64,000 nucleotides of DNA from Clostridia bacterium (GTDB lineage Bacteria; Bacillota; Clostridia; Christensenellales; UBA1242). Of the stretch, positions 13,178-56,433 are shown piece after piece (the first letter of the stretch is position 1; every line of letters starts with the position of its first letter). Made by a program: the position numbers and the translations under genes. The notes beneath the pieces were generated by a model. It was not told where the DNA came from, did not search any database, and saw only the letters and a program-made list of their open reading frames with translations. Where the stretch lies: the NCBI GenBank assembly GCA_016283155.1, contig JAEEMI010000025.1, positions 1-64,000 on the forward strand. The letters run 5' to 3'.

Positions 13178-13630
13178 TTAGTTTGCCTTCCCTTTAATAT
13201 CAATTTTGCGTGGTTTTTGTGCTTCATGTGGATGTTCCGCATTATTATATACTTTTAATTTTTTGAACATTTCACGTCCCAAAGAATTCTTTGGCAACAT
13301 ACCTTTAATTGCGTGTTCAATTACCCAAGCAGGATTTTTGGCCATTGCTTCTTTTGCTTGAGTATATTTATCACCACCAACATAACCACTATAACGGAAG
13401 AAATATTTATCGGTCATTTTCTTACCGGTAAAGATTGCCTTTTCCGCATTAACAATAATTACATAATCACCAGCATCACTGTGTGGTGTGTAAGTTGGTT
13501 TGTGTTTGCCGCGCAAAATTAAAGCGACACGGCTGCAAAGACGACCAACTGGCATACCAGCAGCGTCTACCAATAACCATTCACGTTTGGTATTTTGTTT
13601 GTCTGCAAAAAATGTTTTTTGTGCTATCAT
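13178..13630 (-). CDS. rplM: 50S ribosomal protein L13; likely start MIAQKTF at 13630
   Basis: [49 protein letters not shown]. Confidence 0.97.
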
Positions 13631-13674: not shown

Positions 13675-16600
13675 TTATTTTACGATACGACTCTTTTTGT
13701 GCACTCTTTCTTCCTTAAACATACTTAAATTAATAGGTTTAATACGTCGACGCATGGTAATGTAAACAGCTAATGAAGCAAATGTAGCGATGACACCAGC
13801 ACCTAAGATAACGAACATTGTCATATATTCAGTCCAAGTATTAACCTTGCCAATTTTGTCTTCTTTTTCTGTTGGTTTTTCTTCAACAGTTTTTGCACCA
13901 AGTCCATAAGTCATCATTCCAGTTGGGGTCATTGTTAATGTCTTGTTGCCATATTCTTGCACCCATTCGTTATAGCCTTCACGATAACTATTAATTGTTG
14001 CTGTATCCATACCAGACAATGCCATATATGCTTTAGCTCCAACGGCAACCATACCTGAATTATTAATAGTATTACCCTTGTCGTCCTGGAATACGCACTG
14101 AATACCTTTATCGGTTTGACTTGCCAAAATAGCAACAAATATTACATCGCGGGTTGCAGTCATATTTAAATCGTATTCACGGTCTTTCCATTGTTCACCA
14201 TTGATACCATCATCTAATGTCCAATCAACCTTTGCAGCATACCAACCTTTAATATAATAATTACCAAATAACGTTGACCAGAATTGATTATGATGTTCGT
14301 CTTCAATTACTTGTGGCAAAGTAATCAACGCATTTTGTGCAACAAACGCACCTGTTTCACGGTTTTCATAATTTGCAGCATTGAACCATTGTCCTTTATC
14401 ACGAGCCATACGATAGATTGTCATACCGTCAGTGATTACCCAATCAACGATAAATTTAACATCTTTTGTAGTGAAGAAATTAGCATAGAAAGTCTTTGAT
14501 GAGTTTTCACGATAATATGCACCACTTGGATAATTGTCGCCATTGTTCGAATTCCAACCATTTGCAACTAATGGTTCATTATTATCTGACATTTTTTGAT
14601 AAACATTTTCTTCTAACAAATAATCGACACCGTGCCACTTCCAGTAATCTGATGGAGCACTTACATTTGCTGGAAGTGTTGCGCCATTACCACTATATTG
14701 AATGTGATAAACTTCATATAGCCATACTGTCATTTCGTGTTCAGCCAATCCACGATAATAATAAACATAGTTTTCTTCTTCTAACCAATCAACTTCAATA
14801 TTTTTACGGTTTTCCAAGTTAACATAATAAGCATCAACACTTCTGTAGTAACGACTGTTGTTAGTATTAATAGTTTGAATACGAAGTACAGCACCACCAT
14901 TAAGACCAGTTGAATTAACATCGTCAAAAACACAGAATAAACCATCACCACTATTATTAACCCAACCCTCGTGTCTGAATTGTTCTGGCGTATCATCATA
15001 AAGCATTGTACCTGTAAAATCGATCCAAGCACGAACATATGGCAAAGCGCTATAGCTATTTTCAGGCATTATAATATAAACGGAACGATCCTCTGTAATT
15101 TGTACTTCATCATAAGCACCATCTTGAGTATATGGATAGAAATTTGGATCCAAGTTTTCACTATCTTGAACAATAACCCTAAACTGATATGTACCCAAAG
15201 TTAAGATTTGATTATTCCACGTACGCCAAACTTCATTACGGTTATAATTATCAAACATACGATATTCAAATCTTGAGTGTTCAGTAAACTCAGTTTTTAA
15301 ATCGTCAGAATATTCATCACTGATTTCCACCGAAACACGGTTAGTTTGTTGATTATAGACAGCACGAACTGCGCCTGAATGCAAGGAAATTGCTCCAATT
15401 GTAACAGTAAATGAACCAGTTTCAGGAATATTACCAGCAAAATCAAATATTTTTGAATTATAGCACAAACGATAATAAATCGTATATTCACCTCGATCTT
15501 TTGCTTGAATATTATCCCTTACCCAATTTTCTTGCCCTGCGATGCAATATTCAAAATATGGGATATTTTCTTCATTAAAACCATCATAGAAGTCAACAGA
15601 TGTAGTAGGTGTATTAATCAAGTTTAGTGGTTCTGCTTTATACATTAAATTATACATCGCACTAGGTGCCGTACGAATTGATAAAACGTGTTTTTCCACT
15701 AGAACTTCCAAACGTGTACCCATTGATGGATCATTATTTTGTGGTCCGGTGAACACGTTATTATCATCAACAAACACATAATAGTAAACATCCCACAAAC
15801 CAACTGCATCCACAATTGGAATATCTTCATCCCAATAACGGCCCAAAGTACCTGGAATTTCAGTTGTATAATAAACACAAACGCCTAAACCATTTTCAAC
15901 ATTCAAACGACCAGATACTAAAGCTACAGCTTCGTAACCAATACCATCATAACGTAAACCATAACGTGATTTTGGTGTTTCTTCCCACCAAATCTTACGT
16001 TTAGCAATTTCAATCGTTAAAGTATTATCAATGGTATATTGTGCAGTAGATGTATGGTAGTTACCGGAATAATTTTCACTTTGTGTATCGACCCTAACTT
16101 CATATTGAATGTAATATATACCAGCATTGATGCGTCCTGGTAATTTTTCACTCTCACCACCTTTCCAGGTGTATTTACCCAATCTAGTATCATAATAATA
16201 GAAATATTTACCAGTTAATGCATCTCCGTTTGCATCTACATACCAGAATGCAATTTCAACACCTTCTAATGCTGTACCATTACCATTTTCGAAAGTGAAT
16301 AATTGACCATATGAAATCAAATCTTGTTCTTTTTCGTTATAAATTAGGTTTAATTTAGCCGCAGGTTTTCTCTGTAAACCATAATTTGAATCGCTAGCAT
16401 CCCGAGGATCAATATAAACATTAATTTGTTCAATGTACTGTTCCCAATCCCAATTTTCGTCTGGTAAAACACTGTAATATACATTATAACCAGTCGCATC
16501 CATACCAGTAATTGTACCGACGAAATCCAAAATGCCCCATTCACTATTCCATTCACCAAAGCCGTAACGATATTGGATTGTTGTACCAATTGCATCATAG

Positions 16601-19600: not shown

Positions 19601-22600
19601 GTTGCAATGATTTTTGCCGTATCCAGTTTGATATAATTTGTTGCACTAACATTATCATCATTAATCACCAATTTTAACCATAAATCATATGTTGCAACAT
19701 TAGTTTGTTTAGCGGCTTCAATGGAAGTTACCCATCCAGTTGTACTATCGTTTACAGTAGATGCTGTGGTTAATAAATACTGATGTGATTCAATTGAAGA
19801 ATAACTTGCATTTTTAACTTTAACTGTTGGAACTGCATTGGTTTTAAATAATGATTGTTCAACGCCAACATATTTTTTCTGGGTTTCATTAAATGTATAT
19901 TTAAATTCATATTGTTTATTAGCATTAATTGATGCAGCCGGTGTGTTGGATAATACAACAGATGAACTATTAACCCCTAGTGTTAATTTAGAAACTGTAA
20001 AACGTACTTTCTCGTCGGCATTAATTTGATAAACTTTTGAACCAGCTGCAACATTATCATTTCCGTTCCAAATAATCCACAAATAATAAGTTCCAGCAGT
20101 TTTTACTACTAAATTGGCATAATCGGCCATTGTATATTGTGTACCACTCATTGCCGAGCTACTCTTGCAGATACAAATTTTGAAAGAATTTGAGGCTGCA
20201 AAATCTGCTGCAAGGTTTGTAGTTGACGAACCATTAGTTACGCTAACGGTTGGTGCTGCTGTTGCATTAATTACTTTTTGATTAGCATTACTGAATGTAA
20301 ATTTATGTGTTTTATAGCCACTAGCAACGGTAGCAGCAGACTTAGGAGAATTAAAATCAATTCCCGAGAAATATGTTGTACTAAAATTCTTTAATTGTGA
20401 AATTGTGAAACTACCATAAACACGTCCGGCACTGGCTGCAATGTTAGCGCTTGCTTCCCATTTTACCCACAAATAGTAAGTACCAACATTGGTTTGTTTG
20501 CTTAATGCAGCAACGCTTGATTTCCACTCGTTGGTAACGGTTGGCGCGGTCGAACCATCGGTGTTAACCGCATAAGAAATCGTGCCCAATGCAATATTAC
20601 TGGTCAAACTTAATGTACCAGTGGCAACTGCGTGTTCATTGCCATCATAAACCAACGAACTCGTCATAGTAATACCAATTAATTCACTGTTAGTAACTGT
20701 ATAACCAGCCACATTGATTGTGGCAACTTTAAATTCGACAGCATCTGTCAAACTGTTGTGTTGTTTGACTTTAAACCACAAATGCCATTTTCCACTCTTG
20801 TTAACAGTTAAGGCTTTAATTGCATTATTTAAACTAGCGGCCGTATTTGTATCGGTATAAGTTTTTGTTCCATTTTCATAGACAAAACAATAACTAAGTT
20901 GGTTATAATTTCCGTCGTTATTGGACGAAATTCCGTTGAATTCAGTTTCACCATTAATTTTCAAACTAATTGATTGAGTTTTATTAAATGGGCTAGCTTC
21001 TCCACTTGTGCCATTAATTGTGATTGATTGAGTGTCCCCAGTGAATTCTAAGCCGGTAACTTCAATTCCAGTAGTTGAACTTGATTTAGCAATGATAAAT
21101 GCTGAGATCAAGGTTTTTGCTGATGTTTTAGAATTAATTTGTGCAGAATTCTTGTTAGGTGCCCAAGTTGCTGTCAATGTATAAGTACCCGCATCTAATG
21201 CTAAATTAACTTTAGTATAATCGGTGTTTTCTGTCGTTTTTGTCGTACCATTGAATCCAACGTAACTTAACTTATATGTTACAGTAATCCATTCTGGAAG
21301 TGCGGTAGAATCCGAGGCAATAATCGGAGTACCCGCAAAAATTTGGTGAGCAACACCATCATACGTCGGACTAACGTTTTCTTTCACGGTAACATCGTAA
21401 GTGGCTTTTGCAATTTTTGCCAAAATATTACCAGCCTTAGTCCAACCTTTAGCAGCAAAAGAAGTGGTAGCTTCAGAACGATAATACAAGTAATAACCAC
21501 ATTGTGTTGTGCCATTACTATAGTAAGCATTTTTTCCAGTTAAAGTACTGATATCGGTATTACCAACAGCTTCAACACCGTTTTCGTCATTACCATTCCA
21601 GTTGTTTGATGTCGAAACATAATAGTAAATTGTTGCGGTTTCAACACCACCATTGGTTTGTCCTTTACCAGTAAATAATTGCATTGGACTTCCGGTATAC
21701 ACCAAACCAGTTTTTGCTGCTAAACTACCTATTGCTAAAGTACCATCAGCTTTACCAATGGTCACTACGAAACTTGCGACTTCAGTACTGGAATAACAAT
21801 CATCAGTTCCGTCAATGTACCAACTAATGGTATAGGAATCAACGGCTTTAGCTTTTAATGCATCTGGCATTGTGGTAACTTCCTTCCATTCGCCACTATT
21901 TAATCTGTATTTTAAGACACCATATTGCGCATTAACCGAACCAAGGTCGAATAATGTCAATAAAGCACCAGTATATTTTAACCCAGTCTTTGCCCTGGGC
22001 GCAGTGTAACTTTCTGCCGGAATTACTTGCAAGCTGATTGAGACTGGCGATTGTAAGGTATAACGTTCAGTATCGGCAAAACTCTTGTTACCGGCAGCAT
22101 CCACACCACCCAAAACATAATATTCGATTACATATGAATGACCACCGTTTAAGCCCCTAATCGCATTGGGGTCACTGGTCCATTTACCATTATTATCCGC
22201 TACTCCATTGTCGTTGAAACGTACGTTTGGATGGTCAGCATCAACTGTGGTTGGGTTAGTTAATGGCGTACCATTAGCACTACACGGGTCAAGGTATGAA
22301 CTGCTGAATGCATCTTTAACGCGGTATAAAATTGTACCACCATAACTTTGTCCGCCTTTTTTAATTAATGTTTGGTACGTACCATCATAAACCAAATTAG
22401 GTTCACCGGTCGGTTCTCCATTATCAAGAATTTTCGCCGTAGCAGTGGTAATGCTTGCCGTGAAATATCCCGCCGGATCAAGATCGTTATAACCGGCAGC
22501 ACCAACAACTTTATATTCAATTGTATAGGTACCGATATTGGTCGCCACAATTGTTGTGGCATCGTTAGTCCAATTACCACCGACAAATCGGTACCACAAC

Positions 22601-25600
22601 GTACCCATTACAGTGTTAGTGTTAGGATTATTATTAACATTACCGGCATTAATTAATTGTAACGACTCACCGGTATAAATTACTGCATCACCAGTTTTTG
22701 CGGTCGGTCTTGTATATGTTGGAGTACCTTTAATCACAGAAAAAGTAAGAAATGATTCTGAAGAATCTTCATAGTATTCATTTCCAAAGACTTGATAAAT
22801 AACTCGATAATTACCAACATCCCTTATGTTAAAATACTGCCAACCACCTGAAATCCAACCAGTTTCAGTGTGGTTTGCCGTTCCACCTTCCCGACGGAAC
22901 ACGGTGATTTGTTCATTAGTATCGTTATTATACAATTTAAACTTAATAGTTCCATTGATACCGGCACCAATATTGGTTAACACCGCCTTATATTTACCAT
23001 CATACGTTAAATCCTTAGCCGCAGGTTTATTAGCATTGTTTAACGTCGCTTGACCATTGGCAATCACAATATCAAATTTAAAGTCAGATGAAATATTATC
23101 CGTATATCCATTATTACCGTGGACCATATATTCAAATTTATATGTACCCGGTAAAGTTGCTACGATATCATCAGGATTTGATGTCCAACCGTCAGCATTA
23201 GTTCCCGTTAAATATGTTGAGTCGCCTGATTTTTTCAAACGGTAATATAATGTACCATTGGCATCTTCAGTCTCGCCATTATCATTCAATAATTTCTTTT
23301 CTTCTGCGTTGTAGATTAATCCGGCCTTAGCAGTTGGTGCTCTTTTTAATTTTGCTGTACTGTCAGAAATTGAGACGTAAATTTCTCCACTACCACCATC
23401 TTTAAAATTATTATTTTTCTTGATTAATTTGTACTCAATTTTATATTCGCCAACATCTTTATGCGTAAGATACTCCGACTTGACCGTCCAACCAGCATCT
23501 CCTGAAAGTGTTACAACATTACTTGATGCAATTGTTTGACCACTTAGATTCGTCAAACTACTGGTAATCACTTCCCAGCTACCGCTACTATTTTTCTTGG
23601 AAACACGGTAATACAAGGTACCAGAATCTGTACCATTAACCGGATGCACAGTACCAACTTTTAACAATAAATTTTGATAACTGTTGTTGTATAACAAACC
23701 ACTTTGACCAGTTACAGGTACATCTAAATACGCCGTAAATGGCTGAATCACAAATGATAACGTATATTCCGGACTACTTTCGTTATTAGTTGTGTCACTA
23801 TTGCTCGGCACCGCCTTATATTTTACTGTATAAGTACCAGCACTTGTTGGCGTTAAATCAGTGGCTTTATATGACTCTACTGGTGCGCCACTATTAACAA
23901 TATATTGTATTTTACCACCCGTACTGGCAGTAGCACCACTTGCCAATAATTGCTTACTCGTACCGCTATAAGTTAAATCAATTGGATTGGCGGTCGGATG
24001 CTGAGTAACAGTTAATTTACGTATTGTAACACTTACTTTAATTTCATAAACCGCACTGTTGGCATAATTACTGTTAGTACTTTCAAACCAATATTCAATT
24101 GTATAATCACCCTTGTTTGTTTTGGTCAGTCCACTAAGATTACTTGTAGCAGCACTGTCAGCTTGTCCTTGAAATTTATATTTCACCGTACCACGTGCCG
24201 TACCAGAGCCCCCAAACAAGATGTCCGTACTATTAATTCCGGTTACGGTTGGGGCAGCAGATAATAATTGTCGACCCTGACCATTATAAACCAAATTATT
24301 TTGTGTATTTGGTTTTGGTTGTGAAACCGAAACCGACGCCTTTTCAATTGAGACTTCTATAGGATTGAAAGAAATATTGCCATAACCGACATCACCAATA
24401 ATTGAGTAATAAATTTTATAATTACCGGCATCAACTGCGTGTAAACAATTTGGATCATTTGTCCACTTACCATTACCATCAATACCACCACTATCATTAA
24501 AACGCTTTGCTGTTTCTAAGGTTGCATCAGTCGGATTTGAAACATTGTTTCCATTAGAGTTATTTGGAATAATTACTGTTGTTCCATCTGCTTTGGTTAA
24601 TTTATAAATTAAATACCCGTGACGAGACGCACCACCACCTTGTTCCGTAAAAAGTGTCTGATAAGTACCATTATAGACGAGATCATTTCGTGTATATAAA
24701 GGCTTTAAAAGTTGTGGACTACTCTGTCCCAATTGAACATTAGGGAGCACTTTTACAGGTGCGCTATCTTTATAATTATCATTTCCTTCAACATAACACC
24801 AAACATCATAAGAAACGCCATATTGACCAATTGTAATTGCTTTATAATTAGATGTCCAATTTGTATTTCCTGCAGAAACAGAAGTTCCTGCCGTAAAAAT
24901 GGCATACCTAATTCTCGCACCCATACTCTCATTTGCATTATTTGTTTTTATTGTTCCGCCAGAAGATAAAACCTGAACTGCCTCACCGGTATATTCTAAT
25001 GGATCAACTTTCTGTGGATATGTTGCAATTGCCGCTGTTCCTTTAGAAATGGACACAGAATAAAATTCAGTAGAAGGATATTCACCATCCTGATAGTTTA
25101 ATCTAATATCATCAGATGCATTATCTGCGATTGATCCTTTAACATAAATATAATATGTACCAACCGCACTTGCCTTAATATCATTCCAATCAGTACTTTC
25201 TGCAACTTGTGTTCCATCAGACTTTGTTAATTTATACGTTACAGTAACACCAGTAGTCGGAGTTGTAACTACTTTACCACTCTTTAATAGTACTATATTC
25301 TGACCTGTATAAGTCTTCGCATTACCAGTATGTTTTGCATCACTTGCAATTGACGCAGTTACAGCCAATTTACCAGCTGAAAACAATGCTGTATACGCTG
25401 GATCGCTTTCAGCATAATTTTTACCCATACTATCATCAGCAACCGCGGTAACATAGAATTTCACGCGATAAGTATCCGCATCCTTGATATATATATCACC
25501 ATATGCCGTCGAACTTAAAACATCCGTCCAGCCACCGTTTCCATCGCTTTTTTGCAATACATAATGACGTACATAACTACTTTCCTGAACTTCTTCCGTT

Positions 25601-28368: not shown

Positions 28369-28418
28369 TTACTTATATTATTTAACCACGTTATCAAAAA
28401 AATGTAAAACGATTAATG
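28366..28418. repeat. Direct repeat copy 1: promoter region of giant gene 1, identical to 43260-43312
   Basis: catttacttatattatttaaccacgttatcaaaaaaatgtaaaacgattaatg in both places. Confidence 0.97.
28380..28408 (-). promoter_or_regulatory. Predicted promoter of giant gene 1, TTTACA-17-TTAAAT, 11 nt before ATG; no SD
   Basis: -10 28380-28385, -35 28403-28408. Confidence 0.5.
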
Positions 28419-28421
28419 TTA

Positions 28422-31400: not shown

Positions 31401-34400
31401 TGGTTTAACTAAATATGCAATTTGAGCTTTCGCAATACTAATCTTTGCATAATATCCGGTAAAGTCTTCAATATTATCACTACCCGTCACTTTAACCCAT
31501 AAATAATAATCAATTGCATTTTTACCAGTTATCCTACTTAAATCGGTAACCCAAGCATTTGCATTTGTCGGACCTGCGTTAGTTTCACTACCAGTACCTA
31601 ATCCCCAACGCACAACTATGTTCGGATTATAAGTTTCCAGATTAACATCGCCAACACTTGCATTAATTTTAATCGTTAATTTACCTTCAGTATTTGGTGT
31701 TAAGTCAGCCAAAACTTGATTTTTACCAATGTATGATAAACCACTGTGTGTGTTGATACCATAAAAATAACTTTTGGTTAAAATTGCTTTAGTAATTACT
31801 GCTTTTTCATTCGGGTTATCAATGGCATAGCAACGCATATAATCAGCAATGTTATATTGACCATTTTTGGGATTTGGTTTACCAGTAACTTTTACCCAGA
31901 TATAATAATTGCCAGCATTACGTGCCTTTAAAGCATCAAGATTATTTTCATCAACCCATTCTGCTGGAGCGATGCTAGGATCACTCGAATAGCCATATTC
32001 AATTTTACTATAATCATTGGTACTATTTAATGTATAACCATTACTAAACTTTTGAACAACAATATTGTAATTATCATTCGTTTTTCCAACCAAGGTATGT
32101 TCTGCCCCATTATAAGTCGATGAAGTGAAAGTCATACCACTTAAAGTGGTCTTACGTAACTCAGATTGCGGATCCGCTTGGGCAATTGTAACTGAACCAA
32201 TGTAGCGAGGTTCTAATGCAGTGTGACTTGTACCTTGATTAAATTTAAGCCAAATATAATAAGTTCCCGCGTGAAGTTGTACTAGGTTGCTACCAGTAAT
32301 TGTATAATGCCAAGTATTATCTGATGTCGTACCTGTTTGTGTTCTAACATCAGGGCTACCACTAATGTAATAATATGCCCTACCCATATCACCAACTAGT
32401 TGGTTACCATTCTTCAATCTAACCGTGGCACCAGTCTTAATGATACGTTGATTTTTTCCATTATAGGTTAAGTCATAGAATTCTGGTGCGATAACATCAA
32501 GGTAACGTTCATCAACACGATAAATTTCAGCATAATTCGGAGCTACAAACATCGCATAGATTAACGGAATTGTTCCATCAATATTTTGATAATTATTACC
32601 AGATTTAAGTGCCAACTTAACGTATAATTGATAATTACCAACTGCTAAGGCTTTAGCGGATAAAATTGCTTTCCAAGAATCATCTGTGGCCAATGGAGCT
32701 GATTCGGTCGTAGTTTTGAAGCAATATTTAACATTACCAATGTCAATCTCGTCAGTAACATCATAACCACCAATTGAAACTTTTAATTCACCCGCAATCA
32801 AGCCATCGTTGTAACCTTGATTTGCTCCATTAAACATTACACTTAAACCAGTAATTCCAGAAATACTTAGTTCAGAATATTCGGCTTTTTCAATTTTAAT
32901 TGCATCACGCGTACTACCATCATTAGTAGCATATGTTGTCAAACATTGTCTAATAGTTTCAAAGTTGCTGCCACCATCATCTTCAAACATAATCCACAAA
33001 TAATATGTACCATATTTGGATTTGGTTAAAGTTTCCCAACTTGTATGCCAACCATTTAATGATTTATTACTTGGATCAGGAGAATTAGTACTACTATCAT
33101 TCAAAGCATAATAAACATTTCCTTTACGGTCATTTTCCATTGGATTATAACCAGAAACAACATTACCATTGGCATCACGTTTTTGAACTTCGACAACCAA
33201 ATTAAAATCACTAATCATTTGACGTTCTAAACTATTGTAATGATAGGTTTGTCCACTATAAGTCGTTTTTTTCAAACTAATTGAATTTGCATCGGCAGGT
33301 TTAATTGTGATTGTATTTAATTCAAAACAAACTGGATTTAAAGCATTATGGTTATCGCCAGCTTCAACCTTAATCCAAGGATAATAAGTACCTACCTGAC
33401 GAATAGTAACATCACTATAATTAGTTTTCCATTCGCTAGGTGCTGGTTCAATTTCTGGATTAGTTGAAACACCATATTTGATTACACCCAAAGCACCATA
33501 AGTAGTGTCTGATTTATGATTAGTATATTTAATCTTAGTAGTACCATTACTTTCTTTTAAATAAATTTTGTTACCATTTACTTCATAATACAAACTATAA
33601 TCCATCTCATTCAAGAAAACTTGATATTCCGATGCTGTATAAATTAAATTATCATTTTCCTCAGTTACTAAATTACTGTTTTCAACCTCAACTTTTTTAA
33701 TTTCAACCGTAATAAATACAGTAGCTGAATCAATCGGACCAACATTATCTCCCATATTACGTGTATCTGGTTTGAAATATAAATGATAAGAACCTGCAGC
33801 AGTTTTTTGGGTCAGATTAGCATACGGAACAAAACTATTTTGTGTATCTTCCCAACTATAAAGCAAATTAATTTCCGTCATTTGATGAGTTGTTTGATTC
33901 TCATATTGAGCCGAACCTTGGTTAAAGAGGTCATCATTACTGATAGCGTGCCCCGTATAATACACGTTGTTTTTCTTTGAAGGCATCGTCTTAATTGAAG
34001 CATTGGTTTGACTAATTGAAACTTCAACATACGGGTAATTCGTTTGATTCGCCTCTAATGTCAACGCATTAAAGATAGTAACACCATTTTCGGTATATGT
34101 AGCACCGCGATAATAAATACGATAAGTTCCAGCAGCAACTCTCGTTAAAGACGTTGCATTTTCTGTCCAACTAGTACTTACACCTTCTAGCCAGTACTCT
34201 ACCGCTGGTTTTGTTTGTGTACTCTTCGTAATCAATTGATGTGCGGTTTGTGTATCAGTCACCAAGCCAGTAATTTGTTTCGGTGGAATTTGTACAAACG
34301 ACGTTGTCGGAATAATTTCCGCACTGCCAAGATCATAATATTTTACAGCATAAACGCTGGTTGTATTGTTAATTGTAATTTTTAACCATAAATGATAGAC

Positions 34401-37400
34401 ACCAATATCTGTTACTTTGGCTGCAGCAATTGTATTTTGCCAACCACCCGTAGTAGCAGCAACAGTAGTTTCATTATCATCTTTAGTTAATAAATATTTA
34501 AAGGTTGTTGAAGACGAATAATTAACACCATTAATTTGAACTACTGGAGTTTCGTCTGCTTCAAATAATTGTTGTTGGACACCTTTAAATTCTATATCAG
34601 TAAAAGTATATTGATACTGATGTTGACTAACTCCACCATAATATTTTGCGACTTTAGATTGGTTAGTTAAACTGACCAAACTACTTGCATCAGAATTTTT
34701 CTTAACTTGGAAACTAATTTTAGTTCCCACAACAGCATTGTTTTGATAGGTATTATTATCAATTTGATAGATTTTAGAACCAGCCGCAACATTGGCACTA
34801 CCCGACCAGCTTATCCATAAATAATACGTATCAACATTTTTTACGACAAGACTGCTGTAATTAGCTAATGTATAATAAGTACCAGTCATCGTTGTTTGAT
34901 TATTGCAAACACCAATTTTAAATGCATTAGATGCAGCAAATGATGTAGTAAGATTGTTAATAGTTGTGGTTGTATCTGTACTTGAACTATTAACCTTAAC
35001 CGTCGGCGTCGAAGAAGCCTTAATTACTTTTTGGTTAGTATTACTAAATGTTAAAGAATAAGTTTTATAACCATCTGCAGTAGTGCTTGAAGTTTGTGGT
35101 TCAAAACTAAGGCCAGTAAAATAATAATTAGTAAAGTTTGTTAATTGTGTAATTTTAAAGCTACCATAAACACGTCCCGTCGTTTCAGTTAAGTTATCAC
35201 TTTGATTCCATTTAATCCATAAATAATAAGTGCCAACATCAGTTTTTGTCGGTAATTCCGCAACCGTACTTTTCCAATCATTATCGACCGTAGGTGCTGT
35301 CGTTCCGTCAGAATTAATTGCGTATTTGACACCCGAATAGATTAACGATTGATCAAATGATACTGTAGCACCTGATTTTACAATTTTATATGAACTACCC
35401 TTGTAAACACTGCTACCATTTTTAATATCAGCAGAAGTTGATCCAGTAATTGTCAATCCTTTCATTGTCACATTTGTAGCATCATAACGGGTAACATTAA
35501 TTGTGGCAGCTTTAAAGATGACACCATTCTGTAAACTGTTGTGCGATAATACACTAAACCACAAATACCACGTACCTGCTGTACTGGTGCTTAAGTTTTT
35601 AATTGCCGTATTCAAACTGGATGCAGTTGTACAATCGTTAAACGAACCTAACGCTGATTCATCGCTTTCTTGAGTAAACAAATATCCTAATTGGTTATAT
35701 TCAACGTTATTGTTCACATAATTATTACTAGTAATTCCGTTATATTGATTATTGTTAAATACACTTAAATTAATATTTTGATTGGCATTAAATGGTTTTG
35801 CAGAACCATTAGCATTAATTGCCGATGAGGTTAAGGTTAAACCACTAATCGTGATACCACTGATTGAATCAGTTTGTAAAATCTTAAACACAAAACTGGT
35901 CGTACTTCCTGCAATTTGTTTACTGTAAGTTTTTCCGGCTTTTGGTGTACAAGTAAATTGCAAAGTGTATGTACCAGCGTTAGTCACTGAATTATCTGGA
36001 GTTAAATTTTCAGTAGCACCATTATAACCCACATACGTTAATACAGTTTGAACATCTACCCAAGTGTCATCGGTACCACTATTTGATGAAACAACGTATT
36101 GATTACCAGCATAGATTTTGTGTGGCAAACCATCATAAACAACATCATTGTTTTTACTAATACTTACCGAATATGTGGCTTTACCAATTGTCGTATACAA
36201 CCCAGTACAGCCCCAACCAACTTCATTATATGAGGCTGTGGCATCAGCACGATACCACAAATAATATTTGATTTGATTACCACTGTCATTATATGCTGTG
36301 GTTTTGGTTAAGGCACTAATATCGGTACTTACAACATCTTTGTCACCAGGTGCGACCGTATTTGATTGTGTGATGGCGTAATAAATTGTAGCTTTTTCGT
36401 CTTTTACAGTATCGGTTGATAAATATACTTGACTAGCAGCTCCAGTAAAGAGTTGTTGATCAGCATTGTTATAAATCAAACCACTAATACCATTCAAACT
36501 TCCACGATTAATTCCACCGCCAGTTTTACCAATCGTCACCGTAATGGCTTGAACATAACTATTTTCGTAACCATATACATCCTGTATGTACCAAGAAATG
36601 GTATAAGCAGTGGCTTTGATACCTTTAAATGAATCAGCATTCCACTCGATAAAGCTACTACTATCATTCATTCGGTACATAAACGTACCTGTATATCCCG
36701 ATTTAAACGAACCAGGCGTAATCAAATTTTGTGCTACACCTGTAAACGATAAATTGTTAATTTTTTGTGGTGCTACATAATGTGTTCCTGCTTTCAATTG
36801 AGCTTTGGCAACAGTTAACGAAATGTAGCCCATTCCACTGTCCAAATAATCAGCGTCACCTTGAACGTAATATTCAATGGTGTAATAACCGGGGTCATTA
36901 ACCGTGATATCTTTATAGTTGTATGTAGCAGTAGATACCCAGCCATTTGCGCCACTAATCACATCAGTACCTTTACCAGTAACATTACCATTGGCATCGA
37001 TAATACTTTGGTACATCTCAATTGGTTCACCGGCATTATTAACAACACGGTATTGCATTTTACCGTGTACTGGAACACCGCCAGATTGTAACAACATAAT
37101 CGGGGCACCATCTTTATACACCAAGCTAGTACCAGCACTAGCTTTTGGTTCTTGACCAGCACTAATACTTGCGGCCGCCGCACCAATCGTTACATCAAAC
37201 CAACTGACATCGGTTTCGTGATAATCATAATATAATCTGACACCACTATCCGTAGCACTGACAAATCGATATTGCACCGTATAGGTACCGGGTAAACCAC
37301 GTTTTAACAAATCGGGATATACACCAGTACCCCAGTCATCAAACCAATCGGCATCTGCCCCTTGATTGGCATCACCCTTGATCCGATATTGCAATTTACC

Positions 37401-40400
37401 AATTGTTTTACCACCTGTATTCGTCTTCAAACTACCTTGATTGAACAACGCCTTTTGCACCGCAGCGCCATTATTACCAGTTGTATAGACTAAATCTGTA
37501 CCGACTTTTGCTGTCGGTTTAGTAATTAATGAAGTCGCCGAGCCTTTATTAATAGTAACGGTAAAGAATTGAACCGGCGTGTCATAATAACATTTATATC
37601 CACCGACAGTTTTACCTTCAATGTAATATTCAACCTTATACGTATTTGGCAATTCGGCCTCAATTTTTGAACTATCATTGGTAAATGCCACCATTGCATT
37701 CGAAACGCCAACTTTGGATAATTGATACTTTAATGTTCCAGTACTTGTATCACTGGTTCCTGCATTACCTAATAAACTAAGTTTTGTTCCATTATACGCT
37801 AATGTCGCAGTCGGTGCTGCCGGCTTGTTAGTATCGTTATTACCGTATTTGGCTTGTCCCTGATCAATGGTTACCATAAAGCTGCTTTCGGGGCTATTTT
37901 CATAACCGGTACTTTTACCCTTTGCGTAGTAGGTGATAGTATATGATCCCGGATACGTTCCAACAATTTTACTGGTATCTGTCGTAAAGCCTACGTTGGT
38001 ACTGGGACCAGTAACTTTATAGTTCATTGTTCCCATTGCATTAGCCACGCCAACTTTTGAAAGTAGCCCTATTGAACTACCAACATAAGATAAACCACTC
38101 TTGCCTACAGGAGCGGTAACAACAGCCGCCTGATTTGACAGAATTGACGCCGAAATAGTACCAAGGTTACTGGTAGAATAATTACTTGATTTTGTAATCA
38201 CTTTAAATTCGATTGTATAATTGGCGACATCCTTTACCTTAATATAAGCTATGTTATTTGTCCATTCACCACTTGCAGTAGGAACGCCCGATACATTAAA
38301 TCGTTTTGCGGTATCAACCGTAGCACCTGATGGATTGGATACGGCAGTACCATTACTGTGTGGTATCACGGCTGAATATGCATTATTGGTTCCCTTTTTC
38401 AATATGCGATAAATGATAAAACCATCATCAGCGCTAACACCAGCCTCAATTGTACTTAATAGTTGTTGATAACCATTATTAAACAATTTATCTTCCGCAC
38501 TTGCCGCTGGCACACTGATTTGCAATTTCTGAATTGTCGCGATAATTGTACCAATCGCACTATTTTCACAATTATCAGTACTGTCAGCGGCAGCACGGTA
38601 TTGAATGTAATAATTCCCCGCGTTGGTACCCTTTAAATTTGCAGGCAACGTACTTGGCAAATCAGTCCACCCATCAGTTGGCCACTCGGGACTACCATTT
38701 GTGTATTTTGTAGGCACACGATATTGCATTTTCCAACCAATACCAACGCTACCATTATCAACTAACAAATTTTTTGACGTACCATCATACACTGATACCG
38801 TATTTGGTGTTGGCGCAACGACAGTTGGTGTTCCTTTATAAACAGTAATTGAAATACTTTGTGGATCGCTATCAAGATAATTATTATCAGCAGCAACAAT
38901 TTTATAATCTAAAATATAGTCACCGGCATTTGAAACAGTCATTTGGTTAATATCAGTATTCCAATTTTTACCAGTAATATATCCATTAACACCGTCACTT
39001 TGTTTTCTTAATTTGTATTGGATTGAACCCATTCTTTCTGTGGTTGAACCAAACTTAAAATTAACACTACCCTTCGTTGAATCTGATAACAATTTATGTG
39101 TCACAATTGTACCATCACTACCATAACTAACAGTGAAAGTTCGCGTTGGATTTGGGTAAGTGTCAATTGTTGCTTTATAAGCCGCAATCGTTACCGTCAT
39201 TTCGTATGGAACATGTCCACTAAGCATAAAATATCCATCTGGCCAACCATCTTCACCTACAATATAATACTGGACCGTATAAGTACCGGCCGCCGTAGCC
39301 TTCATCTCATTAATATCAATAGCTGTTTGCCAATTACCAGACGTACCAATGCGGTAGCACACAGTTCCGTGATCCGCCGTACCAGGACTTTCTAATAATT
39401 GTTGAGGACTTCCATTGTAGACAAGACCAGTATAAGGAACCGGTTGTTGTGTTAAACAAGTAACAAGATCACCAACAGCTACTTCTATACTACGTATACC
39501 AGACCGGTTGAAATTTTCGTTACCATCTACGTAAAAATATACTCTATGTTTCCCCGATTCAATTGCTGTGACTGCTGTCCAATCATCTGTCCAACCATTT
39601 ACAAAATCTGTCGTTCCGTTAGATGATGGTATTTCATCAACTACGTAATAAATCTTTGACCCCATTTTGCATTTCACACCATTATTATTCATTACTTCTA
39701 TTATAGTCGCGGGCGACTCAAGTAAACAAAGCGGATCAGATGTATAATTCAAATTTTTAGCACCTGTTGGGTTTGTAGCGCCTGCATTGTTCTTGTTAAT
39801 TACAGCAGTAAAAGAAGTTATCGTCTCAAGGTAGTTTGTTGTTTCAGGAATTTTTGCCCAAACTGTATAATTACCAGCGTCAATGCCATAAATATTACTG
39901 TAGCTCGTATACGTACCGTTTTTATCCAGTGAAAACAATATATTAGTACCCGAATTAGTCTCGTTTGCATATCCAGTACTGCCCAAAAAATGAATCTCAT
40001 TGCCATATTGATACTGATATGAATATATATTCGGTTTAGTTGTAAAACTATTCACGGCTTTGTCAATTCTTATCTCACCGTCCGTGTCAGTATTACCACC
40101 GGTCGCCCAAACATCATCGCTTTGTATATAATCATAACCATTAGTACTGTTTTGCGGACAAGCATTACACTTAACTTTGTATACACCTGCCGATTGCTGA
40201 CTGACATTCGATAATGTGTTAGTGGAAGAAGCTGAATTAGTACCAACACGATATGTTGTGTATTTTATATAATAAGCATTCGTAGGTACGTTTGCATTAT
40301 TTGCAAGTTTTGTCGTTACACTTCCGCCCGAATCTAATAATTTTTGACTGTTTTTATTATAAATAATTGACGTACTTTTCAAAACAGGAGCACTGGCCGA

Positions 40401-43262
40401 AAGTTTCAATGGTTTAATTGCTTCTTCAACAGTGTAAGTATACGTATATTCATTCCAATAAGCACTGGCTGCAACTTTAATATCAATACGATAAGTGCCT
40501 GCATGTGTCCCTCTTATATTATTTATATCGGGAGTAAACGAATTATTCCAAGAAGTAGTTGTACCACCAGCCGTATAATTTTTAAGACAGTAACTAATAT
40601 CACCATAACTGCCGCCAAATAATTTAGCATCACTTGCTAATAACTCATGGGATTGACCATCATAAGTTAAATCATAGACATCAGGAAGAGTAAGATCATT
40701 AACAGTTAACGTTAATTTTCTTATACTGAAACATTCATAAACCTCTGAACTAGTAGTATAATTTTCATTATTAGCTTCGGCCCAACAATATACATAATAA
40801 GTCCCCGGTTCTGTGGCTGTTTGATTAACATCATCTTCACCATAATCTCGATTCTCGTAGGTAAAACGATAATGTATCGTATAATTACTACTGTCAACCC
40901 CGGAATTATTCAGCGTAGCTGGTGTGTCTATAATTTTATATGCAGTATTTAATGCCCAAGTCTGATTAGAGTTTAGTTTCGGTTTGTTCATATATAACCG
41001 TACAGCATAAATGGTTAAATCATCAGATTGAGTGTATCTACTATCTGTATATAATGTTGGATTTAAAGATACTGCTCGTACTCCCAACCGATATGTACCA
41101 GCCTCTGCTACCTTACAATTTGCTTGAACGGTCTGATCAGTGGTTTCTGGTGAATACTCAACCCAATCACCCGACGATGTTTTCTTGAACAATGTATATT
41201 TAACGACAAAATCTTGATTTAGAACGGCACCAACACCTCCCGACCTAACCGACGAACTGTAAGAATTGAAATACGTGCTTGCATAATAACCATCCCAATA
41301 TGGAGTATGATATTCCCCAGAATAATTCCAAGAAATATCATCAGTTCTTGCATACCAATCAATAATATCCAACTGCCCTACGCCAATCGTTCCCCTTAAT
41401 GGTTCATCCGGTATATAATCTGTACACCCCGGAAGAGTTAACTTCCAAAAAACACAGTATTCACCAGGATTACAAGCAACGACATTTGTTGCATTATCGG
41501 TCCATCCTTCATTACCATCAAGATCCTGTCCGTTAGTTAAAACATTACCGGAACTATCAACCGCTTTAAACCAAATACGTCCTCCATTAGAATTTCGGAC
41601 GGTAGATCCATTTTCAAAGCGATATCCATAAATGCAATCATACTCAAAAACTAGTTGCTGATTTTTAGAATTATATCGCAAATCTGTTAGAAAAGCCGGA
41701 ATATTTTTTGGAACAACAGTTCCCATAGGATTCAATGTCAAAGTAATCGTTTTTGTTAGAATTGTATAATCGTAATCAGTTGCCGCATTTACAGGATCAG
41801 AGTAATACATATTATACGCAGGCGGTAATTTACCATCTGCATTCGCCACCGTTGAACCAGTTGCATATAACACATAACGGCATTCAACTTGCACCCTGTT
41901 AGCCGTACCACCAGGGCCAAGAGTTTTTAATTTAATTGATGAAGCATCAGTTGTCCATTCGTTTGTCCACGGATTTTTATAAACCCAAGCAGCGCCAACC
42001 CCAGTACTAACAGCACCATTAGTCAAATTTAAGGCAGCGGAATCAGGAGTCCATCTTGTTTCGCTGCTATTGCCAAACGCATTTTCTACCGTAACACCAG
42101 GGAAAGTATAACTATTTTCGTAAACACCCGTTACATCCTGCGGTAAAGAACTGGGATCAATTCGATAAAACCATACTGCACCATGTCCGTCACCATCAAG
42201 GCATTTGGCACCATTTACGGAATCACTAGAATACAATGGATAAACCCACGGTGAACACGAACCCCCGCCTCCAATTGGAAATCTTTTATCGACCTCTGTA
42301 TATCCAACACCATTAGAACTAGGGGCACCACCACCACCCTTTCTATAACCACCACCACCACCGGCTCCGTTAACGTACGTAGAACCATTTGCGCCTTGAG
42401 TATAAACAGTCACCGAACGTTTATAACCATTACAATTTACCTCATCAGGACCATATCCAGAACCGTCAACACAGCGGAAACCGTCACTATCCTGCGTTGC
42501 TGGCATACCTGGACAGTCTTGATTAAAAGCATTAGGATTACCATTATTAGTAGTAACTCCTAAATAACGCGCAACATCTACCCAGTCCTCTCCACTGTAT
42601 CCTTTAAAAGTTGCATCGGCGGCATTACGCCAGGCTAACTGGGGAGAATCAGATGATTGAATAATATATCCAAAACCACCACCACCACCAGCACGTGAAT
42701 AACCACCTATATGTGAAGAACTAGTGCTGTAATTACTAGCCAAATATATATATCTTTCCATATTTTGTCTTTCTTCCATTAAAGATCCGCCTGGAGTCGC
42801 AAAGTTTGTATCAACTTCGGTACATCCATACCCATCCATACCATAAGCATTATCCGAACCATTCCCAGTTCCACCAGGAATACCAATTCTTATGGTTTGA
42901 CCATTACCTTTATAAAAACCGAAGCAGACAGCACCACGTCCTGATCCATTATTTGTATATGCTTCAGTACCTCCCTTTCCAGCAAAAAAAACAATATACG
43001 TACCATTATCAAAGTTTAAAGTCGTTTGCTCCATTCTAGTTGCGGAATCACCACCAACAACATAAAAAGATGTTTTCCCGGTGGCATCTATTTCACCGCC
43101 ACCCATATATTGCGTACCAGAGCTTCCTGCTTCAACCGTATTTTCTTCCACAGAAGAAACATTGAACCGTTTTAAGATGTCATAAGCAACAACGAAAAGC
43201 GCGACAGCGGAAAATACTACCGCAAGAATTACTATCGACGCTCTTCTTCTTTTGTTCCCCAT
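28422..43262 (-). CDS. Giant surface protein 2 (4946 aa), paralogue of giant 1 with the same architecture
   Basis: MGNKRRRASIVILAVVFSAVALFVVAYDILKRF; AGGGGGYRKGGGGAPS; MBG/YDG-like repeats; C-terminal VTMFVILGVGLLMTVASLVVYLPMRKK. Confidence 0.93.
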   Translation of the reverse strand: MGNKRRRASIVILAVVFSAVALFVVAYDILKRFNVSSVEENTVEAGSSGTQYMGGGEIDATGKTSFYVVGGDSATRMEQTTLNFDNGTYIVFFAGKGGTEAYTNNGSGRGAVCFGFYKGNGQTIRIGIPGGTGNGSDNAYGMDGYGCTEVDTNFATPGGSLMEERQNMERYIYLASNYSTSSSHIGGYSRAGGGGGFGYIIQSSDSPQLAWRNAADATFKGYSGEDWVDVARYLGVTTNNGNPNAFNQDCPGMPATQDSDGFRCVDGSGYGPDEVNCNGYKRSVTVYTQGANGSTYVNGAGGGGGYRKGGGGAPSSNGVGYTEVDKRFPIGGGGSCSPWVYPLYSSDSVNGAKCLDGDGHGAVWFYRIDPSSLPQDVTGVYENSYTFPGVTVENAFGNSSETRWTPDSAALNLTNGAVSTGVGAAWVYKNPWTNEWTTDASSIKLKTLGPGGTANRVQVECRYVLYATGSTVANADGKLPPAYNMYYSDPVNAATDYDYTILTKTITLTLNPMGTVVPKNIPAFLTDLRYNSKNQQLVFEYDCIYGYRFENGSTVRNSNGGRIWFKAVDSSGNVLTNGQDLDGNEGWTDNATNVVACNPGEYCVFWKLTLPGCTDYIPDEPLRGTIGVGQLDIIDWYARTDDISWNYSGEYHTPYWDGYYASTYFNSYSSSVRSGGVGAVLNQDFVVKYTLFKKTSSGDWVEYSPETTDQTVQANCKVAEAGTYRLGVRAVSLNPTLYTDSRYTQSDDLTIYAVRLYMNKPKLNSNQTWALNTAYKIIDTPATLNNSGVDSSNYTIHYRFTYENRDYGEDDVNQTATEPGTYYVYCWAEANNENYTTSSEVYECFSIRKLTLTVNDLTLPDVYDLTYDGQSHELLASDAKLFGGSYGDISYCLKNYTAGGTTTSWNNSFTPDINNIRGTHAGTYRIDIKVAASAYWNEYTYTYTVEEAIKPLKLSASAPVLKSTSIIYNKNSQKLLDSGGSVTTKLANNANVPTNAYYIKYTTYRVGTNSASSTNTLSNVSQQSAGVYKVKCNACPQNSTNGYDYIQSDDVWATGGNTDTDGEIRIDKAVNSFTTKPNIYSYQYQYGNEIHFLGSTGYANETNSGTNILFSLDKNGTYTSYSNIYGIDAGNYTVWAKIPETTNYLETITSFTAVINKNNAGATNPTGAKNLNYTSDPLCLLESPATIIEVMNNNGVKCKMGSKIYYVVDEIPSSNGTTDFVNGWTDDWTAVTAIESGKHRVYFYVDGNENFNRSGIRSIEVAVGDLVTCLTQQPVPYTGLVYNGSPQQLLESPGTADHGTVCYRIGTSGNWQTAIDINEMKATAAGTYTVQYYIVGEDGWPDGYFMLSGHVPYEMTVTIAAYKATIDTYPNPTRTFTVSYGSDGTIVTHKLLSDSTKGSVNFKFGSTTERMGSIQYKLRKQSDGVNGYITGKNWNTDINQMTVSNAGDYILDYKIVAADNNYLDSDPQSISITVYKGTPTVVAPTPNTVSVYDGTSKNLLVDNGSVGIGWKMQYRVPTKYTNGSPEWPTDGWTDLPSTLPANLKGTNAGNYYIQYRAAADSTDNCENSAIGTIIATIQKLQISVPAASAEDKLFNNGYQQLLSTIEAGVSADDGFIIYRILKKGTNNAYSAVIPHSNGTAVSNPSGATVDTAKRFNVSGVPTASGEWTNNIAYIKVKDVANYTIEFKVITKSSNYSTSNLGTISASILSNQAAVVTAPVGKSGLSYVGSSIGLLSKVGVANAMGTMNYKVTGPSTNVGFTTDTSKIVGTYPGSYTITYYAKGKSTGYENSPESSFMVTIDQGQAKYGNNDTNKPAAPTATLAYNGTKLSLLGNAGTSDTSTGTLKYQLSKVGVSNAMVAFTNDSSKIEAELPNTYKVEYYIEGKTVGGYKCYYDTPVQFFTVTINKGSATSLITKPTAKVGTDLVYTTGNNGAAVQKALFNQGSLKTNTGGKTIGKLQYRIKGDANQGADADWFDDWGTGVYPDLLKRGLPGTYTVQYRFVSATDSGVRLYYDYHETDVSWFDVTIGAAAASISAGQEPKASAGTSLVYKDGAPIMLLQSGGVPVHGKMQYRVVNNAGEPIEMYQSIIDANGNVTGKGTDVISGANGWVSTATYNYKDITVNDPGYYTIEYYVQGDADYLDSGMGYISLTVAKAQLKAGTHYVAPQKINNLSFTGVAQNLITPGSFKSGYTGTFMYRMNDSSSFIEWNADSFKGIKATAYTISWYIQDVYGYENSYVQAITVTIGKTGGGINRGSLNGISGLIYNNADQQLFTGAASQVYLSTDTVKDEKATIYYAITQSNTVAPGDKDVVSTDISALTKTTAYNDSGNQIKYYLWYRADATASYNEVGWGCTGLYTTIGKATYSVSISKNNDVVYDGLPHKIYAGNQYVVSSNSGTDDTWVDVQTVLTYVGYNGATENLTPDNSVTNAGTYTLQFTCTPKAGKTYSKQIAGSTTSFVFKILQTDSISGITISGLTLTSSAINANGSAKPFNANQNINLSVFNNNQYNGITSNNYVNNNVEYNQLGYLFTQESDESALGSFNDCTTASSLNTAIKNLSTSTAGTWYLWFSVLSHNSLQNGVIFKAATINVTRYDATNVTMKGLTITGSTSADIKNGSSVYKGSSYKIVKSGATVSFDQSLIYSGVKYAINSDGTTAPTVDNDWKSTVAELPTKTDVGTYYLWIKWNQSDNLTETTGRVYGSFKITQLTNFTNYYFTGLSFEPQTSSTTADGYKTYSLTFSNTNQKVIKASSTPTVKVNSSSTDTTTTINNLTTSFAASNAFKIGVCNNQTTMTGTYYTLANYSSLVVKNVDTYYLWISWSGSANVAAGSKIYQIDNNTYQNNAVVGTKISFQVKKNSDASSLVSLTNQSKVAKYYGGVSQHQYQYTFTDIEFKGVQQQLFEADETPVVQINGVNYSSSTTFKYLLTKDDNETTVAATTGGWQNTIAAAKVTDIGVYHLWLKITINNTTSVYAVKYYDLGSAEIIPTTSFVQIPPKQITGLVTDTQTAHQLITKSTQTKPAVEYWLEGVSTSWTENATSLTRVAAGTYRIYYRGATYTENGVTIFNALTLEANQTNYPYVEVSISQTNASIKTMPSKKNNVYYTGHAISNDDLFNQGSAQYENQTTHQMTEINLLYSWEDTQNSFVPYANLTQKTAAGSYHLYFKPDTRNMGDNVGPIDSATVFITVEIKKVEVENSNLVTEENDNLIYTASEYQVFLNEMDYSLYYEVNGNKIYLKESNGTTKIKYTNHKSDTTYGALGVIKYGVSTNPEIEPAPSEWKTNYSDVTIRQVGTYYPWIKVEAGDNHNALNPVCFELNTITIKPADANSISLKKTTYSGQTYHYNSLERQMISDFNLVVEVQKRDANGNVVSGYNPMENDRKGNVYYALNDSSTNSPDPSNKSLNGWHTSWETLTKSKYGTYYLWIMFEDDGGSNFETIRQCLTTYATNDGSTRDAIKIEKAEYSELSISGITGLSVMFNGANQGYNDGLIAGELKVSIGGYDVTDEIDIGNVKYCFKTTTESAPLATDDSWKAILSAKALAVGNYQLYVKLALKSGNNYQNIDGTIPLIYAMFVAPNYAEIYRVDERYLDVIAPEFYDLTYNGKNQRIIKTGATVRLKNGNQLVGDMGRAYYYISGSPDVRTQTGTTSDNTWHYTITGSNLVQLHAGTYYIWLKFNQGTSHTALEPRYIGSVTIAQADPQSELRKTTLSGMTFTSSTYNGAEHTLVGKTNDNYNIVVQKFSNGYTLNSTNDYSKIEYGYSSDPSIAPAEWVDENNLDALKARNAGNYYIWVKVTGKPNPKNGQYNIADYMRCYAIDNPNEKAVITKAILTKSYFYGINTHSGLSYIGKNQVLADLTPNTEGKLTIKINASVGDVNLETYNPNIVVRWGLGTGSETNAGPTNANAWVTDLSRITGKNAIDYYLWVKVTGSDNIEDFTGYYAKISIAKAQIAYLVKPQYYGDGINPQLTYNCAEQSLLVREPVAYFAPTTTTYYTDPDEVVSGKPYYLASEVQYQYQVNNGNSINNYINVKGIDAGILNQVSNTYIGTRYRVSYNVIAGNNWNQKSEYVDVYIAPIDASDYNFGLINNPNPVTGIVYDENEHELITYGHLAIMDNDRGTANEGAKIAFWYTDQPNNKYYYYYNKTSSNYVWENGKLPGRTDHGTYYIQYQIIAGTNNHNYYDSAIYGLEINIAQRQIKWHVNPRPIYGLKYNNHMQVAVEAGYFNHEINDNSVKVYYSKQKPYTENREWSIELPQVDKTGVWDIYYYVDFDADNKHNNVFIGPENNDPAVGELLQVLVERHILSIRTAPESTYMEYTAEYQNLIYYYSLSTDYASVFDPEDMPYFEYSFDCNVWNDYNIMAKDCGNYLIYYRLHYNDDIFDFSGKIPMSGEINAVIYTKYIVQGLVTAAYDLNTKTVSMAADSYSTALQNEFSQYAKFQYRIYDEYNLNRTWEDWQQDGQQLPMGTYQFRIIVEDKINPTPNFNPYTQTESYQIVEIKEDRKVFIVMPNNTYSTLAYVRAWIDFTGTMTYEEAPTQYRYEGWANTNGDKLFCTFKDLSTTGVKGKAVLRVQTLNNAYYFRTADELNQETRRKTLVKWNEEKDTYYKGLPTADLRVYLYEVYHIQYSGNGAVPMTGTVAPDESWKWHGIDYLLEENIYRKETTDTHELLTPNGWNTARAGNGNNYPSGSYYRGNSSQIFYADFFKSDVVKYKINWIIMNDTDVYSIALKTGKWFNVNNDRSRETGVYVEKDAPILLPQIVEDEDHNQFWTGTLFNNYRIKGWFTTDGDWTIDDGINDPHWKNIEYYFNMKATSNMTFVADLEETTDDVQCVFQDQQGKQISASGIVANGAKSYLALSGMDTATYTTYQDGYQEWMQTYGQSALNATPDDAITFTLQTNSTPEKPTENPETTKDSFQEYVTMFVILGVGLLMTVASLVVYLPMRKKLYTIK

Positions 43263-43312
43263 TTACTTATATTATTTAACCACGTTATCAAAAAAATGTA
43301 AAACGATTAATG
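43260..43312. repeat. Direct repeat copy 2: promoter region of giant gene 2, identical to 28366-28418
   Basis: 53-bp identity by eye. Confidence 0.97.
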
Positions 43313-56343: not shown

Positions 56344-56349
56344 AATATA

Positions 56350-56378
56350 ATGATAGCCGAAAACTACAATAAAACCAA
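56350..56378 (-). promoter_or_regulatory. Predicted promoter of the clpX-like gene, TTGGTT-17-TATCAT, 6 nt before GTG
   Basis: -10 56350-56355, -35 56373-56378. Confidence 0.5.
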
Positions 56379-56427: not shown

Positions 56428-56433
56428 TCCGCT

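What the first reader, a model, noticed from the sequence alone, without database searches (positions are those of the whole stretch)
13675..43262. Tandem pair of about 4.9k-residue surface proteins occupying 46% of the window
Two adjacent uninterrupted ORFs of 14.7 and 14.8 kb share the architecture: MGNKRRR signal/TM, Gly-rich Cys-containing domain, about 34 degenerate repeats each (anchors such as LVYNGTYQTLF, LVYNGSPQQLL, LTYDGKYKAVL followed by W....GTY.V.Y), InlB/Flg_new-like segment (YHIQYSGNGA...GWN...YPSGAYYRENSSKTFYANF), C-terminal TM with basic tail. Maintaining 29 kb of coding sequence in an otherwise compact locus implies strong selection. Function is inference: a very long fibrous adhesin or surface layer.
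Basis: partly seen in the sequence, partly recalled or inferred. Interest (0 to 1): 0.8.

Follow-up and report, generated by a model that had tools for sequence, protein, structure and literature searches.

The report
Paired giant bacterial surface fibre genes
A tiny-genome gut bacterium spends about 3% of its DNA on two neighbouring genes for very long, bead-on-a-string proteins that look like surface fibres for gripping other cells or surfaces; the general kind is known, but this tip, anchor and pairing have not been described as far as I could find.

Summary
Two intact, adjacent ORFs (4,897 and 4,946 aa; 3.07% of a 0.96-Mb Clostridia MAG) are colinear paralogs (41% identity). Each has an N-terminal signal/TM, a Gly-rich domain, 33-35 degenerate ~116-aa repeats, a divergent InlB B-repeat (Flg_new) segment, and a C-terminal TM with a basic tail. 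There is no LPxTG motif, and no sortase in the genome. The same giant, single or paired, lies between mtaB and rplM in other species of the genus, and I found it nowhere else in the family.

New here:
(1) The stalk has two parts. About 17 membrane-proximal repeats correspond one-to-one across four species. Sixteen distal repeats are an expansion in this lineage.
(2) The Gly-rich tip's weak AlphaFold model matches ALK/LTK glycine-rich domains (top 12 PDB hits), although no Pfam model matches.
(3) Both genes share 75 identical bases across promoter and start; the motif precedes every giant whose start is held, and exact matches occur nowhere else in the genus genomes searched.
(4) Pairs recur in at least two other species, one with a collapsed 6.6-kb shared 3' part.

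Most likely these are sortase-free, membrane-anchored giant adhesins of a partner-dependent gut bacterium. The ligand is unknown. It is a new variant of a known kind.

The parts
13675..28368 (-). giant 1 (P1), 4,897 aa, rplM-proximal copy
   Evidence: intact ORF, orthologous C-terminus in 5 other genus members
28422..43262 (-). giant 2 (P2), 4,946 aa, mtaB-proximal copy
28291..28347 (-). P1 N-terminal hydrophobic signal/TM after MGNKRRR (residues 8-26)
   Evidence: Kyte-Doolittle 2.87
27004..28257 (-). P1 Gly-rich N-terminal domain (residues 38-455), putative ALK/LTK-like tip
21724..27003 (-). P1 distal repeats 1-16 (residues 456-2215): lineage-specific stalk expansion
15301..21744 (-). P1 core repeats 17-33 (residues 2209-4356): one-to-one orthologous with repeats of sister species
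14473..14727 (-). P1 degenerate InlB B-repeat/Flg_new segment (residues 4548-4632)
   Evidence: direct Pfam search negative
13759..13815 (-). P1 C-terminal TM helix (residues 4852-4870), followed by basic tail
43185..43241 (-). P2 N-terminal signal/TM (residues 8-26)
41787..43148 (-). P2 Gly-rich N-terminal domain (residues 39-492)
36489..41786 (-). P2 distal repeats 1-16 (residues 493-2258)
29994..36515 (-). P2 core repeats 17-34 (residues 2250-4423)
29163..29429 (-). P2 degenerate InlB B-repeat/Flg_new segment (about residues 4612-4700)
28455..28511 (-). P2 C-terminal TM helix (residues 4918-4936)
28369..28418 (-). P1 promoter/leader, 50 bp identical to that of P2 (TTTTACAT..TTAAATAATATAAGTAA-ATG), continuing 25 identical bp into the gene
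43263..43312 (-). P2 promoter/leader, identical 50 bp
43318..44346 (-). mtaB-like gene (by sequence reading), conserved upstream neighbour of the giants
13178..13627 (-). rplM (L13), conserved downstream neighbour, with rpsI at 12771-13175

Best explanation
These are two paralogous giant surface-fibre adhesins. Each chain is exported by Sec (N-terminal signal). It stays in the cell membrane through a C-terminal TM helix and basic cytoplasmic tail rather than by sortase. A divergent InlB-type beta domain sits at the base. A flexible string of 33-35 Ig-like beta domains (roughly 140 nm if extended, assuming about 4 nm per domain) crosses the cell wall and presents an N-terminal Gly-rich domain at the outer tip, which I infer is the binding part. 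The membrane-proximal half of the stalk is an old core; this lineage lengthened the outer half by duplicating repeats, then (or with) a tandem gene duplication. The pair keeps one shared promoter/start sequence, probably through gene conversion, while tips and distal repeats diverge. The likely use is attachment to partner microbes or gut surfaces by a bacterium with a reduced genome. Shown: sequence anatomy, synteny, paralogy, core/expansion split, shared leader, absence of a detectable sortase. Inferred: extended shape, orientation, binding role, partner.
For: Intact giants at the same locus in sister species. TM at both ends and no LPxTG; no sortase in the genome while 3 of 14 control genomes ring. 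Repeat model confident and beta-rich, pLDDT 85; its best though non-significant Foldseek hits are mostly Ig/FN3/PKD-type domains, including SiiE. Repeat consensus nearly reaches Lreu_0056_like (E=6e-5, 23.7 vs cut-off 26 bits) and matches a Ruminococcus albus 'adhesive domain' protein (42%, E=3e-5). The Gly-rich domain's model hits ALK/LTK structures first. Base homologous to InlB B-repeat through an intermediate. One-to-one core, 17-19 colinear pairs vs at most 11 in 2,000 permutations. dN/dS below 1. The likely family, UBA1242, is described as an obligate symbiont/parasite with membrane proteins that may serve contact with other cells (PMC12306168); assignment to UBA1242 is my inference.
Against: No binding, proteomic or imaging data. 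The N-terminal helix lacks a clear cleavage site in several orthologs, so the N-terminus may stay in the membrane. The ALK-like model has pLDDT 53 and low TM-scores. The repeat model has no significant structural match.
Confidence: 0.6

Rival explanations
1. A shield rather than a gripper: a dense brush of long Ig-domain fibres that keeps phages, predators or host defences away from the membrane, with no specific ligand.
For: Length, repeat-built stalk, lineage-specific lengthening and rapid divergence of tip and distal repeats would suit a brush under immune or phage pressure.
Against: A separate conserved N-terminal domain with invariant Gly/Tyr/Trp residues in 7 sequences suggests a specific function at the tip; one or two gene copies is little for a coat.
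Confidence: 0.2
2. A chain anchored at both ends (uncleaved N-terminal helix plus C-terminal TM) that forms a giant loop or envelope tether inside the wall and is not a free fibre.
For: Two strong hydrophobic helices, one at each end, in all complete orthologs; cleavage-site motifs are not obvious right after the N-terminal helix in G002 and G009.
Against: A basic n-region followed by a hydrophobic helix is the usual form of a Sec signal; AxA-like motifs follow (for example AVYAAET in G001b). Signal-peptide prediction could not be run.
Confidence: 0.12
3. Variable pair for antigenic or binding switching: the shared promoter/start and recombining repeats allow exchange between copies, so the pair is a diversity generator.
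For: 75 bp identical at both starts against 41% protein identity; G001 paralogs are mosaic, dS 0.29 to saturated; G005 has a collapsed 6.6-kb shared 3' part.
Against: No recombinase or inverted repeat at the locus was found or tested; homogenisation alone explains the leader; compatible with, not exclusive of, the adhesin reading.
Confidence: 0.15
4. Assembly artefact or decaying genes.
For: Source is a MAG of 32 contigs; giants in sister MAGs are often split at contig ends.
Against: No stops or frameshifts, no internal DNA repeats, complete single giants in G007 and G009 at the same locus, purifying selection in a paralog pair.
Confidence: 0.02

Closest known systems
Apilactobacillus kunkeei Giant1-5 (PMC12863079)
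   Same: Consecutive genes for 3,000-8,000-aa extracellular repeat proteins in a small Bacillota genome, purifying selection, intragenic recombination, conserved C-terminal segment.
   Different: Those have N-terminal beta-solenoids (Giant1-4), mostly alpha-helical repeats in Giant1-3 and DUF5776 C-termini; here a Gly-rich tip, beta-rich repeats, an InlB-type base and a TM anchor.
Mobiluncus mulieris giant adhesin, 7,651 aa, 51 Ig-like domains (PMC10619420)
   Same: N-terminal putative binding region on a very long string of Ig-like domains.
   Different: LPxTG-anchored and cross-linked by ester/isopeptide/thioester bonds; no LPxTG, ester (HxDxxDxxQ) or TQxxZW thioester motif here.
InlB B-repeat / Flg_new surface proteins (PF09479)
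   Same: Membrane-proximal segment is homologous through an intermediate; the genome holds 34 Flg_new matches.
   Different: The stalk repeats are another domain family with no Pfam match above cut-off.
MBG/YDG/Lreu_0056-type bacterial Ig-like repeats
   Same: Y(N/D)G...L...V.Y...W...AGTY.V.Y layout; sub-threshold Lreu_0056_like hit; MBG in 1 of 45 repeats.
   Different: Below every curated cut-off; about 116 aa and highly degenerate.
ALK/LTK glycine-rich (TG) domain (PF12810)
   Same: Foldseek top 12 PDB hits of the tip model; Gly-run pattern.
   Different: No sequence match to PF12810 or PDB; model weak; bacterial surface setting.

Membership tests
LPxTG/sortase-anchored adhesins (MSCRAMM-like) | C-terminal LPxTG | tested here: not met
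   no LPxTG in any of six giants
LPxTG/sortase-anchored adhesins (MSCRAMM-like) | sortase in the genome | tested here: not met
   PF04203 absent from G000 (88% complete) while controls ring
Ester-bond/thioester cross-linked giant adhesins | HxDxxDxxQ and TQxxZW motifs | tested here: not met
   0 occurrences
Apilactobacillus Giant family | DUF5776 C-terminus | tested here: not met
   no Pfam hit
InlB B-repeat (PF09479) | profile match of the C-terminal segment | tested here: inconclusive
   P1/P2 below threshold; G005 copy E=0.014; profile comparison with a true Flg_new domain E=3.5e-11
ALK/LTK glycine-rich domain (PF12810) | profile match | tested here: not met
   no match in own genome even at E<=10
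ALK/LTK glycine-rich domain (PF12810) | fold | tested here: inconclusive
   top 12 of 350,542 chains, E 0.007-0.11, but model pLDDT 53 and TM about 0.2
MBG/YDG/Lreu_0056 Ig-like repeats | profile match above cut-off | tested here: not met
   consensus 23.7 vs 26 bits; 45 repeats scanned singly, no consistent family
Bacterial Ig-like stalk domains in general | beta-sandwich fold | tested here: inconclusive
   AF2 pLDDT 85, beta-rich; no Foldseek hit with E<=0.001

The most novel reading that the evidence does not exclude
A genome-reduced, partner-dependent gut bacterium carries a tandem pair of sortase-free giant fibres whose tips have the fold of the animal ALK/LTK receptor glycine-rich domain. 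The two copies exchange sequence through shared ends, so tip and stalk length can be changed rapidly to track partner cells.
Probability: 0.2. Interest if true: 0.75.

Novelty: new variant of a known kind. Interest (0 to 1): 0.5.

Why it matters
Members of gut lineages with genomes under about 1.3 Mb (probably UBA1242) are thought to live off other cells, but I found no attachment device named for them. A genus-specific, heavily funded giant fibre at a fixed locus is a concrete candidate, and its core/expansion structure makes fibre length a measurable evolutionary trait. The possible ALK-like tip would extend that unusual fold to bacterial adhesion.

Tried and rejected
Pfam, NCBIfam and PHROGs on whole proteins and domains: nothing above cut-off. 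PDB by sequence: nothing significant. Viral contigs: no relative; phages: none. Own-genome Flg_new HMM and first hhalign against the C-terminus: negative (one search used wrong-strand copies and is void, and the hhalign part reused its failed input); only the intermediate-sequence route worked. First leader pattern had a one-base error and found nothing, not even its own source; repeated correctly. C-terminal tree joins P1+P2 (90/96) but with a fast P2 branch; the N-terminal tree is unresolved, so the age of the duplication is not settled. S-layer reading: no support. Giants directly upstream of rplM in other genera: none in the ten loci read.

Full report
What is there. The window (contig C3, 153 kb, of a 962,603-bp, 32-contig assembly) holds two intact ORFs on the minus strand, P2 (28422-43262, 4,946 aa) and P1 (13675-28368, 4,897 aa), 53 bp apart, between an mtaB-like gene and rplM-rpsI. 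Together they are 3.07% of the assembly. They align end to end at 41% identity, from about 20-30% in the outer repeats to about 55% at the C-terminus. DNA self-comparison finds no internal repeats, so assembly collapse inside the genes is unlikely.

Anatomy. MGNKRRR plus a hydrophobic helix; a Gly-rich domain (about 420 aa, invariant Gly runs, Tyr and Trp across 7 sequences); 33-35 repeats with median spacing 116 aa; a 500-aa C-terminal domain with a degenerate InlB B-repeat; a TM helix and a basic tail. No Pfam or NCBIfam model reaches its cut-off anywhere. One repeat folds as a beta-rich unit with pLDDT 85; Foldseek gives no significant match, and most of the best hits are Ig, FN3 or PKD-type domains. 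The consensus repeat comes close to PF22125 Lreu_0056_like and matches a Ruminococcus albus plasmid protein annotated as adhesive. The InlB reading needed an intermediate: a 12.7k-aa ORF of a family relative contains a true PF09479 domain (46.9 bits) that aligns to the C-terminal profile with E=3.5e-11 (genome search E=6.4e-13).

Tip domain. I expected an ALK-type glycine-rich domain from the Gly pattern before searching. The AlphaFold model of P1 38-470 is weak (pLDDT 53, pTM 0.62), but its first 12 PDB hits are all ALK or LTK glycine-rich domains (E 0.007-0.11), followed by a gap to 0.71. No sequence profile supports it. I treat it as a lead.

Two-part stalk. Comparing every repeat with every other, repeats 17-34 of P2 pair one-to-one and in order with repeats 2-19 of the single giant of sister species G007; P1, G009 and G002 behave alike. 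Colinear chains of 17-19 were seen against at most 11 in 2,000 permutations. The outer 16 repeats have only one or two counterparts in the sisters, and some resemble each other (P1 8/15, 12/14; P2 12/13), so this lineage lengthened the outer half. P1 and P2 share most outer positions in order, so the expansion mostly came before the gene duplication.

Genus distribution. The C-terminal domain is found in G002, G005, G007, G008 and G009. Complete single giants lie between mtaB and rplM in G007 (3,314 aa) and G009 (3,153 aa); G002 has 3,533 aa beside rplM; G001 has one after mtaB and a second beside another gene. Pairs recur. In G002 a second C-terminal tail lies upstream, sharing 137 identical bases with the downstream copy. 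In G005 three contigs overlap by exactly 127 bases in a loop (C24-C28-C24-C26), which is what tandem copies sharing a collapsed 6.6-kb 3' part would give. In 147 family genomes full-length matches to the terminal domains are confined to this genus; other genera have unrelated genes upstream of rplM in the loci read. Named relatives are Clostridia MAGs, two of them from deer caecum and buffalo rumen.

Shared leader. The 50 bases before each start and the first 25 coding bases are identical in P1 and P2, although 8 of the first 37 codons differ silently further on. The motif TTTTACATTATTTT...TAAATA, or a clear variant, precedes all six further giants whose start I could read, at nearly constant distance from ATG, with G002 the most divergent. 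Exact matches in the ten genus genomes occur only before giants. Each giant probably has its own promoter, with a very short or no 5' UTR and no Shine-Dalgarno site. Gene conversion or strong constraint could keep the identity; the 8 silent changes nearby favour a limited conversion tract.

Selection. Window paralogs are too diverged for dS. In the G001 paralog pair dN/dS is 0.15-0.57 in 100-codon windows with measurable dS, and divergence is mosaic (dS 0.29 to saturated), as in the recombining giants of Apilactobacillus kunkeei (PMC12863079).

Interpretation. The genome has no detectable sortase and the giants no LPxTG, so the C-terminal TM is the likely anchor. The family (about 0.6-1.3 Mb genomes in many genera within an order of larger genomes) fits GTDB UBA1242, described as an obligate symbiont/parasite with uncharacterised membrane proteins that may serve contact with other cells (PMC12306168). 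On that basis a partner- or surface-binding fibre is the best single explanation; shield and double-anchored tether remain open.

Novelty. Giant Ig-repeat adhesins and consecutive giant genes are known (PMC10619420, PMC12863079). The sortase-free anchor, possible ALK-like tip, core-plus-expansion stalk, shared leader and occurrence in reduced-genome gut Clostridia make this a new variant, not a new kind.

Noticed in passing
window 44346, 54186, 13627, 28368, 43262 (starts of mtaB, rnhA, rplM, P1, P2): Genes at operon heads have a -10-like box ending about 6-11 nt before ATG and no Shine-Dalgarno site, suggesting leaderless mRNAs, while several downstream genes (rpsF, ssb, rpmA) have AGGAG-type sites.
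   Followed up: partly
L065-L067 (G169 C1), L038-L039 (G034 C42), L040-L041 (G050 C29): Other genera of the family/order carry even larger ORFs (about 12.7k, 10.1k and 12.5k aa) of Flg_new or MBG-like repeats.
   Followed up: partly
L044 (G001 C23): Second giant of G001 lies next to a ToxN-like gene (by eye) and shares an 81%-identical 664-bp tract with the giant at the mtaB locus.
   Followed up: partly
window 62506-62829: Small protein matching Pfam T4SS_pilin (PF18895, E=2.9e-10), unexpected in a reduced Clostridia genome.
   Followed up: no
window 11910-12734: Short, divergent MreB/Mbl-like protein matching only positions 74-323 of the profile, beside an M50 peptidase and rpsI-rplM.
   Followed up: no
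G000 C26 and others: Own genome has 34 Flg_new matches, in ORFs of up to 3,454 aa; that largest ORF also shows BspA-like LRR sequence: a large surface-protein investment.
   Followed up: no
window 56134-57996: Two adjacent paralogous ORFs of unknown function; one has a weak, sub-threshold DUF7689 hit.
   Followed up: no
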